DNA of 64,000 bases from Rhodocytophaga aerolata (GTDB lineage: Bacteria; Bacteroidota; Bacteroidia; Cytophagales; 172606-1), in the NCBI RefSeq assembly GCF_030503435.1, contig NZ_JAUKPO010000005.1:186001-250000 (forward strand), in the 5' to 3' direction. The position numbers and the translations under genes are program-made. Below are positions 42,678 through 47,748 of this stretch, one piece after another. The stretch's first letter is position 1. The number at the start of each line of letters is the position of its first letter. The notes under the pieces are model-generated. The model saw only the letters and a program-made list of their open reading frames with translations, did no database searches and was not told the DNA's origin.

Positions 42678-43394
42678 ATGAAAACAATTCTAAAGAAAGC
42701 TTTCTTCTCCCTATTTTTTGCCTTCACTTTACAACAGAGTTTTGCCCAGACCTTCCTGCCAGCCATAGACCGGTTTTCTTCTAAAAAAGAAGGATATCTG
42801 GTAACGGCTAAAGGCGATACCACTAAATTTTTGCTTGATGACTTGGACCGTAAAAAAGGCCTGATTGTGAATGTGACTGGCAAAGATATGAATGGGAAAA
42901 AGTTTGAATATAAAGCGGAAGATATACAATTCCTGGCTTTAGCACCTGCCGACTTTTCCAAGCTTTCTGCCTATAGTGAGGGCAGCGGCTCCATATTGAG
43001 AGCAAGTAAAACAGATTTCAAATCTATTAACCGCGACCTGGTGTTTTTTTATCAGGAATACCTGGAAGACAAAAAGAGAACTGTTTTAGTGCAATTACTG
43101 AATCCTGGTTTTGACAATACCTTACGCGTATATAATGACCCGTATGCAATGGAAACCTCTGGTGTGGCCGTAGCCGGTGTACAAATGACTGGTGGTATGG
43201 ATAAATCTTATTATGTTAACTACAAAGGCAAAACTTTCAGAATGTATAAAAAAGATTACGATAAAAAATTCAAAGAATTCTTTGGAGACTGCCCCGAGTT
43301 AAAAGCAAAATATAAAAACGAAGCATGGCGTGATTTCGCTGAACATGTGTTCTTCTATGAACAAAGCTGTGCCAGTGCACTTTCTACTAAATAA
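42678..43394 (+). CDS. Secreted hypothetical protein
   Basis: 238 aa with a signal peptide (MKTILKKAFFSLFFAFTLQQSFAQ). The mature part is Lys/Phe-rich and alpha/beta mixed (EGYLVTAKGDTTKFLLDDLD, KFEYKAEDIQFLALAPADFS, VFFYQEYLEDKKRTVLVQLL); the C-terminus has Cys residues spaced as in CPELKAKYKNEAWRDFAEHV...EQSCASALSTK. The family is not recognised. It is followed by a terminator shared with the convergent Thg1-like gene. Confidence 0.55.
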   Translation: MKTILKKAFFSLFFAFTLQQSFAQTFLPAIDRFSSKKEGYLVTAKGDTTKFLLDDLDRKKGLIVNVTGKDMNGKKFEYKAEDIQFLALAPADFSKLSAYSEGSGSILRASKTDFKSINRDLVFFYQEYLEDKKRTVLVQLLNPGFDNTLRVYNDPYAMETSGVAVAGVQMTGGMDKSYYVNYKGKTFRMYKKDYDKKFKEFFGDCPELKAKYKNEAWRDFAEHVFFYEQSCASALSTK

Positions 43395-43423
43395 CTAATA
43401 CTTACTTCATCAACACTACTTAG

Positions 43424-43457
43424 CCGCCGGATAGTAACTATATCCGGCGGTTCTTTT
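43424..43457. terminator. Terminator between convergent genes
   Basis: Ten-bp GC-rich perfect stem (43424-43433 with 43441-43450), 7-base loop, then a T-rich tail on the plus strand. Confidence 0.83.
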
Positions 43458-43460
43458 TAT

Positions 43461-44219
43461 TTATAGTTTATTCAACATATGGAGCAGCCATTCTTTATAC
43501 CCCGGAAAAGGCAATTCTAATTCATATAATAATTCCCGCCTTTCTACGGTTGTCTCCTCATTCGTAACCGGATTTAGGCCTTTTTTGTATACAGTTTGCC
43601 AGTAAAATCCCATGCCTCTCTTTTGCCAGGCAGGTAGGGTATTGTAATTTATATTCATCTGAAATAACAGTTCGTTTTTCTCTGCAACAGAGAGTTTTTG
43701 TAAACGGTTAGTTGCTTCGGCCACTGATTTACCTTGTTCCCGCAGTTTCCAGTAGCAGTAAGCATTTAGCGAATTACGGTGGGCATCTTCTGCCCGCCAC
43801 AGAAAATAATCGGTTACCAGATCAAGCGTGGGTAATATGCACAACCGGCAGTCAAATACGCCAATATGCTGCAAAGCATGTGTAAAGGCTGCACTTGCTT
43901 CTCCGGCCAGTACAGAAAGCAATTTCCGGTATTTACGGTTAAACGATTGGTCATTAGGGTGAAAAAGCAAGGAGATTTCATCACTCTGTGTGTAGCCATA
44001 CTCTATAGTGAATCCGCTATTCATCAGATGCTTCATTGTACTAATCATGGCATCCCGGAACTCCATGGAAAAAGGTTTTTCCAGATCCAGGATTTCTTTG
44101 CTCAGTTTAGTAAAACCTCGGCCATCCAGGCGGGCTATCATGTATAGATCTGGCGGCACAAACTGATCGGCAGCCGTTTCGTAGAGGCGCATTTTTGCAT
44201 CAAAATCATTGAACTTCAT
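43461..44219 (-). CDS. Thg1-like 3'-5' RNA polymerase (tRNA-His guanylyltransferase family)
   Basis: 252 aa. Adds nucleotides to the 5' end of RNA in the 3'-5' direction, in bacteria usually to repair truncated tRNA rather than to add G-1. The catalytic carboxylates are Asp32 in ARLDGRGFTKLS and Asp80-Glu81 in YTQSDEISLLF. The eukaryotic HINN motif appears in relaxed form (EDAHRNSLNAYCYW). It overlaps the kinase gene start by 14 bp, so the two are translationally coupled; the kinase would prepare the 5' end. It ends with the LLYELELPFPGYKEWL segment, a normal length for the bacterial forms. Confidence 0.85.
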   Translation of the reverse strand: MKFNDFDAKMRLYETAADQFVPPDLYMIARLDGRGFTKLSKEILDLEKPFSMEFRDAMISTMKHLMNSGFTIEYGYTQSDEISLLFHPNDQSFNRKYRKLLSVLAGEASAAFTHALQHIGVFDCRLCILPTLDLVTDYFLWRAEDAHRNSLNAYCYWKLREQGKSVAEATNRLQKLSVAEKNELLFQMNINYNTLPAWQKRGMGFYWQTVYKKGLNPVTNEETTVERRELLYELELPFPGYKEWLLHMLNKL

Positions 44220-44658
44220 GTTGCCAAGGTTTAGTTATAAATTCATTGGATGAGGTTAGTTGCACATAATATAATTCATGATAGCCCTCTTCCCAGGAAG
44301 GAAGTTGCAAAGCCCGGTATTTAGCCAGTACGCCTTTTTCACTGACCAGTTGCCGGCCGCTTCTACTGGCATTCCTAGCCAGGCAACCTTGCAGGTTTGC
44401 TTCGAAATAGTATCCGGTGATAGTATAGCGGTGCTGAATGGCTTGGTCTATGTATTTCTTACGGTCTTGCAGGGTTACGTTGGTATTGTCTACCACCAGA
44501 GGCATGGATGTCTGAAAGCAATATTCGAGAAGGCGCTTCTCGCGGTTACGGGTACGCAGCATATCCAGGTTTACCCGCAGATGCGTATGGAAAAAGTGCT
44601 GTGTATAATAGGTGCTTTTGCCACTGCCAGGAATACCAATAAATAAAATTAGCTGCAT
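44206..44658 (-). CDS. P-loop kinase resembling the polynucleotide kinase domain
   Basis: 150 aa. Walker A GIPGSGKST (8-16), acidic NLDMLRT (Asp32) as in T4-type 5'-hydroxyl polynucleotide kinases, VVDNTNVT and a C-terminal lid (NASRSGRQLVSEKG). It probably phosphorylates 5'-OH RNA ends with ATP. Its stop overlaps the start of the Thg1-like gene, forming a two-gene repair unit (kinase first, then 3'-5' polymerase). It is single-domain, without the phosphatase or ligase domains of larger Pnkp proteins. The RNA substrate is inferred from the neighbour. Confidence 0.75.
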   Translation of the reverse strand: MQLILFIGIPGSGKSTYYTQHFFHTHLRVNLDMLRTRNREKRLLEYCFQTSMPLVVDNTNVTLQDRKKYIDQAIQHRYTITGYYFEANLQGCLARNASRSGRQLVSEKGVLAKYRALQLPSWEEGYHELYYVQLTSSNEFITKPWQHEVQ

Positions 44659-45945: not shown

Positions 45946-46593
45946 TTATCGGCTGCCAGTAACAGACTTTTCATATTCAATAACCACAGGTGGATGCGAT
46001 GGGCGGTAACGGATATCCAGATAACTGGCATTAATATAGGTAGTTCCCTCCTGCTCTATTTGCCCATATTGCTCGTGAATATGGCCGAATATATGGTACT
46101 TTGGCCGGATATACGTAATCTTCTTTCTCAAGTCTTCGTCACCTACTGCTATTTCTCTCACCGTCATATCCAGGATACCGGCTGGGGGGCCATGGGTTAC
46201 TACTATATCCGTATCTTCTGAAATGAGTTTCCAGTGTTTGCGGATATCATCTCCGGGGTAGCGGTTAAAAGCCCAGTTGTGATAAAATGGCGTAACTGGT
46301 GATCCCCAAATTTTTATTCCTTCTACTTCTACCATCGAATCGTTCAGGTAGATACAATTCTTCGGTACCATCAATTCAAACAATTCCGGCTCTTTTTCGA
46401 GGTAAAAATCGTGGTTGCCTCCGATAAATAGTTTATAGGGATGTGGTAATTGGCTATACCACGTTAAAAAGTCTTCTATTTCTTCCGCCTTGCCAAGGGT
46501 ACTTATATCTCCGGCATGAATCAGTATGTCTCCTTGCGGTAATTGCAGCGAATGGTGCTGCCCATGTGTATCAGAAATGCAGATTATCCTCAT
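45946..46593 (-). CDS. Calcineurin-like metallophosphoesterase
   Basis: 215 aa from the ATG at 46591-46593 (MRIICISDTHGQH); a longer frame adds five residues without support. All metal motifs are present: SDTHG, ILIHAGDIS, FIGGNHDFYL, VTHGPPAG and IFGHIHEQYG. It resembles MPPED-type small phosphodiesterases. It is 66 bp downstream of the RlaP-type nucleotidyltransferase on the same strand, so it may remove 2',3'-cyclic or 3' phosphates from RNA, but the substrate is not shown by the sequence. Confidence 0.85.
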   Translation of the reverse strand: MRIICISDTHGQHHSLQLPQGDILIHAGDISTLGKAEEIEDFLTWYSQLPHPYKLFIGGNHDFYLEKEPELFELMVPKNCIYLNDSMVEVEGIKIWGSPVTPFYHNWAFNRYPGDDIRKHWKLISEDTDIVVTHGPPAGILDMTVREIAVGDEDLRKKITYIRPKYHIFGHIHEQYGQIEQEGTTYINASYLDIRYRPSHPPVVIEYEKSVTGSR

Positions 46594-46659
46594 AATGTAT
46601 TTGGCCATGGTCCAGAGTCAATGGTCCACAGAAATAGGTCTTTTGTCAGTCAACAGTCA

Positions 46660-47748
46660 TTACTCATTCGTGTCGTACCATTGTTTTCGTAGGTCTACCA
46701 ACAAGGCGTTTACGGCAGCATACGCTGGTTGGTTGGGTAAAAGAGAGTGTTTATATAGCTCTTCCATCTGTCTGGTTTTTTCTTCAGCCATATGTACCAG
46801 TTCTTCATAAGAGAATTCTCCCCGCCTGATCTGTAATAAGAATTCCCGGTTTGGCCGCCTGACCAGTACCTGATGTTGCGTAGCTATTTCGGTAGCCATT
46901 TCTAGCAGCCGGATGGTGTGCATCATATTTTTAGCATCGTAATTTTTACCATGTTGCAAAGTATTGGCATACCGTTCTTCGTTGCGTTTGTCTACCCATT
47001 CCCAATATTCTTTGTAATCTTTACAATAGGTAGAATAGCCATCTTTGTTGAAATACAGGTATGTTGCCGGAACCATTCCTTTCGGTACACTGCTTACGGC
47101 CACATCGTTGGATGCTTCTTTCCGGTATATACCTTTAAATCCTAGCTTATCCTGCCCGTCAGTCAGTTTAGCCTGCAGGTCAATATATATAGCATAGACA
47201 TTCCGCATGTGCGGCACATTTACTAATCCGCAATATTCCTGCGGTACCCCTTCCCTTTCCAGCCACTCTTTAGCTGCTACTGCCTCTGACCCTGAGGTGA
47301 TATAACAAAAATCCAATACATCTTTCCGCTTCTGCTCTACCGGATTCAGGATTTTTTTGTTCAATCCTCTGGCTTTCTGTATCTGGCTGATGGCATATCC
47401 GGCAAAGGTATCTTTGCAGAGTTTAGACAGAAACATTTCCGGTTTAATTAAATTGAAAAGCGAATGTTTGTACAGAATGCAATCTTCCGGTGCGTTGAGC
47501 ATTTCCAGAATATTCGGGTTGTTCCGGTTAAGCAGTTCAATAAACCGTTTCAACTCATAGTACACTACATCATTCGATTCGTTATTAATCTGTTCAATAT
47601 ACCGTAAGCTATAATATTCTTCTTTAGGAAGCACAAATACTCCTTTAATATCAGTGTCAGAAGTGGGTAAATCTGTGCCATAGGCTCTACTCCCAGAAAT
47701 ACATTCAAACAATAGCCAGTTTTGTTGTTTTAGTTCTTCTATGGTCAT
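46660..47748 (-). CDS. RlaP-type nucleotidyltransferase (RNA-repair-associated polymerase-beta fold)
   Basis: 362 aa. The nucleotidyltransferase motif is ISGSRAYGTDLPTSDTDIKGVFV (Gly19-Ser20; Asp31 and Asp33), followed by YELKRFIELLNRNNPNILEM and a helical C-terminal half. The COG3541-like proteins with this arrangement recur beside RNA ligases, Thg1-like enzymes, kinases and phosphoesterases in predicted RNA-repair systems. It may add nucleotides to 3' ends of damaged RNA. First gene of a unit with the phosphoesterase, 1.3 kb from the kinase/Thg1-like pair on the same strand. No RNA ligase is in the window. Confidence 0.8.
   Translation of the reverse strand: MTIEELKQQNWLLFECISGSRAYGTDLPTSDTDIKGVFVLPKEEYYSLRYIEQINNESNDVVYYELKRFIELLNRNNPNILEMLNAPEDCILYKHSLFNLIKPEMFLSKLCKDTFAGYAISQIQKARGLNKKILNPVEQKRKDVLDFCYITSGSEAVAAKEWLEREGVPQEYCGLVNVPHMRNVYAIYIDLQAKLTDGQDKLGFKGIYRKEASNDVAVSSVPKGMVPATYLYFNKDGYSTYCKDYKEYWEWVDKRNEERYANTLQHGKNYDAKNMMHTIRLLEMATEIATQHQVLVRRPNREFLLQIRRGEFSYEELVHMAEEKTRQMEELYKHSLLPNQPAYAAVNALLVDLRKQWYDTNE

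What the first reader, a model, noticed from the sequence alone, without database searches (positions are those of the whole stretch)
43461..44658. Polynucleotide-kinase-like and Thg1-like 3'-5' polymerase in one overlapping unit
A 5'-OH kinase-like P-loop protein overlaps by 14 bp with a bacterial Thg1-like protein. A kinase that restores a 5' phosphate followed by an enzyme that adds nucleotides to the 5' end suggests a 5'-end healing pathway for damaged tRNA or other RNA. Thg1-like proteins are uncommon in bacteria, and the relaxed HINN motif suggests repair rather than G-1 addition.
Basis: partly seen in the sequence, partly recalled or inferred. Interest (0 to 1): 0.68.

Follow-up and report, generated by a model that had tools for sequence, protein, structure and literature searches.

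The report
Kinase–Thg1 RNA end-repair gene pair
Two overlapping bacterial genes encode a probable RNA 5'-end kinase and a polymerase that builds RNA backwards; the pairing was already predicted to repair broken tRNA 5' ends, and relatives of this copy sit among other RNA-repair genes and, unexpectedly, sometimes inside histidine-biosynthesis operons.

Summary
Window 44206-44658(-) encodes a small polynucleotide-kinase-family kinase, 43461-44219(-) a Thg1-like protein (TLP) with its catalytic carboxylates intact; they overlap by 14 bp. The pairing is not chance: the kinase lies just upstream of Thg1 in 71 of the 80 best-matching named loci and 29 of 37 loci of the order. But it is already known: Anantharaman et al. 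2010 (PMC2904730) described bacterial Thg1–PNK operons and proposed RNA repair. Best explanation: a 5'-end healing module. Added here: (1) the window's Thg1 falls in an eight-member clade in which seven have RNA-repair genes (RtcB, Ro60, slipin, KptA, RlaP, Hen1, Pnkp) within 8 kb, against 7 of 96 other loci (a comparison made after the fact); in the window it is RlaP, 2 kb away, not in the same operon. (2) Thg1+ genomes of the order carry RlaP (35/37) and Pnkp (30/37) more often than Thg1- ones. (3) tRNA-His encodes G-1 and C73 in all 26 genomes read, so ordinary G-1 addition is not required. (4) Placement with histidine-biosynthesis genes needs three changes on the Thg1 tree, which keeps a tRNA-His-linked role open. 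Activity is untested.

The parts
44206..44658 (-). [quoted passage not shown] Walker A GIPGSGKST, D32, R37, DNTN, RNxxR lid
43461..44219 (-). 252-aa Thg1-like protein (TLP), predicted 3'-5' RNA polymerase; R30, D32, S79, D80, E81, K99, R125 present
   Evidence: residue roles from passages of PMC3701042
44206..44219 (-). 14-bp overlap of kinase end and Thg1 start (suggests translational coupling; inferred)
   Evidence: the two frames overlap in 89 of 100 linked pairs, by exactly 11 bp in 49, with mechanical start choice
46660..47748 (-). RlaP-family (PF10127) Pol-beta-type nucleotidyltransferase, about 2.0 kb upstream; same strand but a separate unit. Possible functional partner
   Evidence: linkage not kept in the same-genus genome G004
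45946..46608 (-). metallophosphoesterase next to RlaP (matches PADLOC candidate PDC-S10, E 3.8e-93); membership of the module doubtful
   Evidence: no match near RlaP in G004 and G024

Best explanation
The pair is a 5'-end healing module for RNA, most likely tRNA. The kinase puts a phosphate on a 5'-OH end left by a ribonuclease; the Thg1-like protein activates that 5' phosphate with NTP and adds the missing nucleotides in the 3'-5' direction, copying the opposite strand (for example a 5'-truncated acceptor stem). The healed end is then usable as it is or can be joined by a ligase encoded elsewhere (the genome has Pnkp–Hen1, two RtcB and an RNA_ligase-family protein); RlaP may restore the 3' side. 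Shown here: gene identity, intact core active sites, PNK-like fold of the model, conserved linkage, association with RNA-repair genes, encoded G-1. Inferred: substrates, order of steps, coupling by overlap, any physical complex. Predicted in print in 2010.
For: Linkage to the kinase in 71/80 and 29/37 loci; no other cluster came near it (kinase cluster in 94 of the 115 loci in the neighbour table, next partner in 10). Kinase subfamily in 38 of 291 genomes, 32 of them with Thg1. Kinase model nearest to PNKP/Cth Pnkp. Seven core Thg1 residues invariant in 20 of 20. RNA-repair neighbours in 7 of 8 members of the window's clade vs 7 of 96 others: RlaP–Thg1–Hen1–Pnkp in L046 and L055 (two RlaP in L055); WYL–Ro60–slipin–RtcB–PNK–Thg1–x–RlaP in L112 and L115 (second RlaP in L112; L115 ends there); Ro60–slipin–RtcB–PNK–Thg1–x–KptA in L143 (for the proteins run against Pfam or NCBIfam, the rest by tblastn). 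RlaP in 35/37 Thg1+ vs 64/254 Thg1- genomes, full Pnkp 30/37 vs 31/254; by genus 17/17 vs 34/98 and 14/17 vs 12/98 (counted by hand). Thg1 overlaps an RlaP gene on a Thiodictyon plasmid. tRNA-His encodes G-1 and C73 in 26/26 genomes read, 19 with Thg1. Published: bacterial and archaeal TLPs prefer 5'-truncated tRNAs in vitro (passages of PMC6471195).
Against: No ligase in the unit. In the window RlaP is a separate unit beyond two opposite-strand genes, and in G004 (same genus) RlaP, Thg1 and Pnkp all lie far apart. K48, which I align by eye with the activation-step lysine of ScThg1, is Lys in only 4 of 20 relatives, and the Asn implicated in activation in eukaryotic Thg1 is Ala-153 here. RtcB needs a 5'-OH end (recalled), so a 5' kinase beside RtcB could compete with it. 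Six genomes have the kinase without Thg1, five Thg1 without the kinase. Most other loci (89 of 96) show no RNA-repair neighbour within 8 kb. The clade comparison was made after the fact, with probe proteins taken mostly from clade members (L046, L055, L112, L143, window), and ignores relatedness. Co-occurrence may partly reflect large genomes. Placement with his genes fits a tRNA-His role better than general repair.
Confidence: 0.72

Rival explanations
1. tRNA-His-specific maintenance: the pair restores G-1 on tRNA-His that has lost its 5' end, and is co-expressed with histidine biosynthesis in some lineages.
For: In genus g14 the pair lies between HisC and HisB in 21 of 30 Thg1+ genomes (in three of them about 0.5 kb separates the HisC match from the kinase); in Dysgonomonas L138 it lies between HisD and HisC, and in a Cytophagales MAG (L165) Thg1 precedes HisF and HisIE; three changes on the Thg1 tree. 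Among 91 hand-thinned immediate neighbours, the Pfam families seen at least twice were RtcB, the aminotransferase family (two hisC, named) and generic methyltransferase, GNAT, LuxR and AAA_5 families.
Against: G-1 and C73 are encoded in all 26 genomes read, so the activity would normally be redundant; most loci, the window included, are not near his genes; the L138 operon also holds other genes (a DJ-1 gene by Pfam; a GNAT- and a cupin-like one by eye); the MAG case stands at a contig start with the upstream part missing; the 21 genomes of g14 are one clade, and changes on a tree may be gains or losses.
Confidence: 0.13
2. Thg1 acts mainly as a 5'-activating (adenylylating) enzyme that prepares kinase-treated ends for ligation, rather than as a polymerase (an alternative raised by the 2010 authors).
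For: Neighbouring ligases in L046, L055, L112, L115 and L143; suggestion in PMC2904730 passages.
Against: Residues assigned to nucleotidyl transfer (R30, K99, R125) are invariant, while the aligned activation lysine is not; ATP-dependent ligases activate their own substrate (recalled).
Confidence: 0.05
3. The kinase acts on a nucleoside, sugar or protein, and its linkage to Thg1 is regulatory or historical.
For: AAA_33 is a broad family; the kinase occurs without Thg1 in 6 of 38 genomes; phosphofructo-2-kinase and gluconate kinase structures rank above T4 Pnk.
Against: The 17 best fold matches are PNKP, Cth Pnkp or two fungal kinases of unstated function; DNTN and RNxxR motifs shared or similar in PNKP; linkage across phyla.
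Confidence: 0.06

Closest known systems
Bacterial Thg1–polynucleotide kinase operons (Anantharaman, Iyer and Aravind 2010, PMC2904730)
   Same: Same two genes in one predicted operon, same proposed logic (kinase makes the 5' phosphate that Thg1 uses), RNA repair as proposed role (abstract and passages).
   Different: The window's clade is tied to RlaP, Hen1–Pnkp and Ro60–RtcB clusters and other lineages to his genes; the passages read name RNA ligase and MACRO partners, not these (figure and additional file not seen).
Bacillus thuringiensis TLP (BtTLP, PDB 4kgk/4kgm; PMC3701042)
   Same: Thg1-like protein with the same metal carboxylates; described as a repair-type TLP (passages); PDB match E 1.1e-19.
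   Different: The nearest PDB sequence is another Thg1-like protein (5axk, 5e-27); activity of the window protein is unknown.
Bacterial Pnkp–Hen1 RNA repair
   Same: Related 5' kinase; full Pnkp and Hen1 are neighbours elsewhere in the window's genome (L192) and stand in a row with Thg1 in L046 and L055.
   Different: The window kinase is a lone ~150-aa domain without phosphatase or ligase.
RlaP (RNA ligase-associated Pol-beta nucleotidyltransferase)
   Same: PF10127 member 2 kb away; predicted in print to restore lost nucleotides before ligation (PMC7824862 passages).
   Different: Not in the same operon in the window; a Thg1–RlaP neighbourhood recurs in other lineages.

Membership tests
Thg1-like protein (TLP) of the Thg1 superfamily | Thg1 catalytic domain and Thg1 C-terminal domain | tested here: met
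   PF04446 4.9e-30 and PF14413 2.4e-16, above cut-offs
Thg1-like protein (TLP) of the Thg1 superfamily | Metal-binding carboxylates and transfer-site residues | tested here: met
   D32, D80, E81, S79, R30, K99, R125 invariant in 20 of 20 rows; aligned to human THG1; roles from PMC3701042 passages
Thg1-like protein (TLP) of the Thg1 superfamily | Activation-step lysine | tested here: inconclusive
   K48 in the window at the position aligned by eye, but Lys in only 4 of 20 relatives
Thg1-like protein (TLP) of the Thg1 superfamily | Templated 3'-5' addition to truncated tRNA | not testable with these tools
   biochemistry needed
Bona fide (eukaryotic-type) Thg1 | Intact HINN motif | tested here: not met
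   HRNS at 147-150
Bona fide (eukaryotic-type) Thg1 | tRNA-His genes lack encoded G-1 | tested here: not met
   G-1 and C73 encoded in the window's genome and 25 others (one gene each); 4 of 30 genomes had no pattern match
5'-OH polynucleotide kinase (PNKP/Pnkp/T4 Pnk type) | P-loop kinase fold nearest to PNK structures | tested here: met
   top hits 3zvn, 1yj5, then 4gp6; T4 Pnk 1ly1 only at rank 27, after phosphofructo-2-kinase and gluconate kinase
5'-OH polynucleotide kinase (PNKP/Pnkp/T4 Pnk type) | Walker A, catalytic Asp, lid arginines | tested here: met
   G8, G13-T16, D32, R37, R95, N96, R99 invariant in 18 of 18; their role in PNKs is recalled
5'-OH polynucleotide kinase (PNKP/Pnkp/T4 Pnk type) | Phosphorylates 5'-OH RNA | not testable with these tools
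   biochemistry needed
Thg1–PNK predicted operon (2010) | Kinase gene just upstream of Thg1, same strand, conserved | tested here: met
RlaP-associated RNA repair cluster | RlaP and RNA-repair genes in one operon | tested here: not met
   RlaP is 2 kb off with two opposite-strand genes between; RlaP next to Thg1 on one strand in L046, L055 and, after one small gene, L112

The most novel reading that the evidence does not exclude
The kinase–Thg1 pair serves tRNA-His in particular and has been wired repeatedly into histidine-biosynthesis operons, so that cells re-grow the G-1 end of tRNA-His when histidine is made; in the window's own clade the same 5' module is paired with the RlaP 3' nucleotidyltransferase, giving a system that rebuilds both ends of a broken RNA before ligation.
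Probability: 0.13. Interest if true: 0.75.

Novelty: new member of a known kind. Interest (0 to 1): 0.45.

Why it matters
The natural substrate of bacterial Thg1-like proteins is not settled (PMC6471195 passages). The window's clade links the 5' polymerase to several known bacterial RNA-repair modules, and the his-operon copies name a specific tRNA to look at; both give direct tests in bacteria that can be grown. The pair itself was predicted in 2010, so the advance is in context, not in discovery.

Tried and rejected
Considered and rejected: (a) G-1 addition as an essential maturation step: tRNA-His encodes G-1 in 26 of 26 genomes read. (b) The metallophosphoesterase as a conserved phosphatase partner: no match near RlaP in G004 or G024; a PADLOC match alone (PDC-S10) does not show a defence role, which listed papers with at least two of three terms, found none naming PDC-S10. 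(c) A defence-island reading: the kinase, Thg1 and RlaP have no PADLOC match; Thg1-like genes occur in 123 phage and 20 plasmid records, all at under 60% identity. (d) A shared operon of RlaP with the pair: two + strand genes lie between; promoter-like and terminator-like sites were no more frequent than in shuffles. (e) Loss of the small kinase where Thg1 joins Pnkp (L046, L055): it is present elsewhere in both genomes. (f) Acceptor-stem mismatches of tRNA-His as a Thg1 editing target: they lie at 5:68 and 6:67, deep in the stem, and also occur in G069, where no Thg1 was found (75% complete genome).

Led nowhere: the key follow-up paper (Burroughs and Aravind 2016) is not held, so I cannot say that Thg1–RlaP neighbourhoods are unreported. 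That I saw no mention of Thg1 in his operons rests (20 of 67 papers listed, titles and abstract starts) and a term search in PMC8305728 only.

Rows dropped and biases: the 80 named loci are the best-scoring of at least 553 relatives. Tree without L036, L037, L045, L054 (broken or cut Thg1), L228 (fragment) and duplicates L109, L110, L161. In one search six divergent Thg1 rows were set apart (3 of the 6 have RNA-repair neighbours), and most of the probe proteins came from members of the window's clade. The neighbour scan used 91 proteins: 90 picked by hand from the 142, plus the HisF gene of L165 added by me; one g14 his-operon row (L062) stood for that clade. The NCBIfam tally shows 25 of 491 families, the Pfam tally 25 of 132 but all that match twice. 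The tree is a quick one; the window clade has SH-aLRT 88, the g14 his clade 81.

Full report
OBSERVATION. The two reported ORFs exist on the minus strand: kinase 44206-44658 (150 aa) and Thg1-like protein 43461-44219 (252 aa), overlapping by 14 bp. The Thg1 call is unambiguous (PF04446 4.9e-30, PF14413 2.4e-16). The kinase belongs to AAA_33 (1.2e-13); by sequence its best solved relatives are mammalian PNKP (1.2e-5), a fungal P-loop protein (3.4e-5) and Clostridium thermocellum Pnkp (5e-5). Its AlphaFold2 model (pLDDT 89) matches PNKP, two fungal kinases and Cth Pnkp at ranks 1-17, then phosphofructo-2-kinase (18), gluconate kinase (19) and T4 Pnk (27).

ACTIVE SITES. In an alignment of 20 Thg1 proteins the residues that correspond to human R27, D29, the Ser-Asp-Glu triplet, K95 and R130 (window R30, D32, S79-D80-E81, K99, R125) are invariant; their roles are taken from passages of PMC3701042. 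Against a perfect match: the position that I align with the activation lysine is K48 in the window but Lys in only 4 of 20, and the Asn implicated in eukaryotic activation is Ala-153. HINN reads HRNS. In 18 kinases the Walker A lysine, D32, R37 and the RNxxR lid are invariant.

LINKAGE. In the order (37 of 291 sampled genomes have Thg1) the kinase lies within 700 bp upstream on the same strand in 29 of 37 loci, in two of them with a gene between; in the 80 best-matching named loci from Bacteroidota, Bacillota, Myxococcota, Pseudomonadota, Cyanobacteriota, Chloroflexota, Acidobacteriota and others in 71 of 80, three of these with a kinase frame under 130 aa (the two sets share 3 loci). Kinase end and Thg1 start overlap in 89 of the 100 linked pairs, by exactly 11 bp in 49 (starts are chosen mechanically, so long overlaps may be artefacts). 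No other neighbour cluster comes close: the kinase cluster spans 94 loci, the next partner 10. Across the 291 genomes the small kinase (E <= 1e-15) occurs in 38, of which 32 also have Thg1; 5 Thg1+ genomes lack it.

THE WINDOW'S CLADE AND RNA REPAIR. On a quick tree of 135 Thg1 proteins the window groups with G004 (same genus), G055 and G082 (same family), L131, L143, L112 and L115 (SH-aLRT 88). Seven of these eight have an RNA-repair gene within 8 kb, against 7 of 96 other main-type loci (Fisher 1.2e-6). This test was made after the fact, most of its probes came from clade members, and it ignores relatedness, so the P value is only a guide. The exception is G004. The contexts are RlaP–Thg1–Hen1–Pnkp (L046, L055), WYL–Ro60–slipin–RtcB–PNK–Thg1–x–RlaP (L112 and L115, a second RlaP in L112), Ro60–slipin–RtcB–PNK–Thg1–x–KptA (L143) and Ro60 alone (L131). 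In the window the neighbour is RlaP, 2.0 kb upstream on the same strand but beyond two + strand genes; in G004 it is not linked. Of the six divergent, kinase-less Thg1 loci, three (L031-L033) also lie by RtcB, two of them with KptA and Ro60, and L033 with a macro-domain gene directly upstream. Thg1 overlaps an RlaP gene on a Thiodictyon plasmid and lies 2.4 kb from one in a jumbo phage.

GENOME CO-OCCURRENCE. RlaP occurs in 35 of 37 Thg1+ and 64 of 254 Thg1- genomes; Pnkp over its family cut-off in 30 of 37 and 31 of 254. By genus, counted by hand from the listings: 17 of 17 vs 34 of 98 and 14 of 17 vs 12 of 98. Genome size was not controlled. The window's genome also holds Hen1–Pnkp, two RtcB genes and one RNA_ligase-family gene over cut-off.

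tRNA-HIS. A pattern for tRNA-His matched in 26 of 30 genomes; all 26 encode G-1 and C73, 19 with and 7 without a Thg1 match (one gene per genome). Ordinary G-1 addition is therefore not needed.

HIS OPERONS. In one genus of the order (g14, unnamed; probably Hymenobacter, my guess) 30 of 120 genomes have Thg1, and in 21 of the 30 the pair sits between HisC and HisB. In Dysgonomonas sp. PF1-14 the order is HisG–x–HisD–x–x–DJ-1–PNK–Thg1–HisC–HisB; in a Cytophagales MAG Thg1 is followed by a 100-aa ORF, HisF, another ORF and HisIE, its upstream side missing. These are three changes on the tree, which cannot tell gain from loss. Among 91 hand-thinned immediate neighbours, the Pfam families seen at least twice were RtcB, aminotransferase (two hisC by NCBIfam), and generic methyltransferase, GNAT, LuxR and AAA_5 families; HisB and HisF each appear once. 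The counts are small and the test was made after the fact, but Thg1 is by name a tRNA-His enzyme, so the link was not an arbitrary one.

PRIOR ART. [quoted passage not shown] PMC6471195 (passages) reviews TLP repair of truncated tRNAs; PMC7824862 (passages) treats RlaP and Thg1 as repair nucleotidyltransferases of jumbo phages. Burroughs and Aravind 2016 was not available.

VERDICT. A well-preserved member of a known predicted RNA-repair pair. The contextual links (RNA-repair islands in its clade; his operons elsewhere) are the informative additions. Mechanism inferred, not shown.

Noticed in passing
L059-L063, L065, L066; L138:3232-10949; L165:199-3462: PNK–Thg1 (Thg1 alone visible in L165) inside or beside histidine-biosynthesis operons in three places of the Thg1 tree; 21 of 30 Thg1+ genomes of genus g14.
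   Followed up: yes
L112, L115, L143: Large RNA-repair clusters (Ro60, slipin, RtcB, PNK, Thg1, with RlaP or KptA) with a conserved ~132-aa protein directly after Thg1 that has no Pfam match (tested in L112).
   Followed up: partly
L055:6263-8168; L197, L198, L199 (RlaP regions): RlaP occurs as two neighbouring paralogues (about 250 aa with a full Pfam match, about 360 aa with a partial one) near Hen1–Pnkp in several genomes; the window has only the long type.
   Followed up: partly
L081 (tRNA-His of the window's genome), also L079, L080, L082-L087, L103, L104: tRNA-His acceptor stems of the window's family and some other genomes of the order have non-pairing bases at 5:68 and/or 6:67; genus g14 stems read here are fully paired.
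   Followed up: no
L036, L045, L054, L228; L061: Thg1 frame broken or fragmentary in four genomes (G141, G209, G191, G732) with the kinase matched in one piece; the kinase frame is broken in G257 (L061). Decay or sequence error.
   Followed up: no
window 45946-46608: Metallophosphoesterase beside RlaP matches the PADLOC candidate family PDC-S10 over nearly its full length (3.8e-93).
   Followed up: partly
window 43422-43452: Inverted repeat of 12 pairs followed by a T run, a likely terminator of the + strand gene 42678-43394 that converges on Thg1.
   Followed up: no
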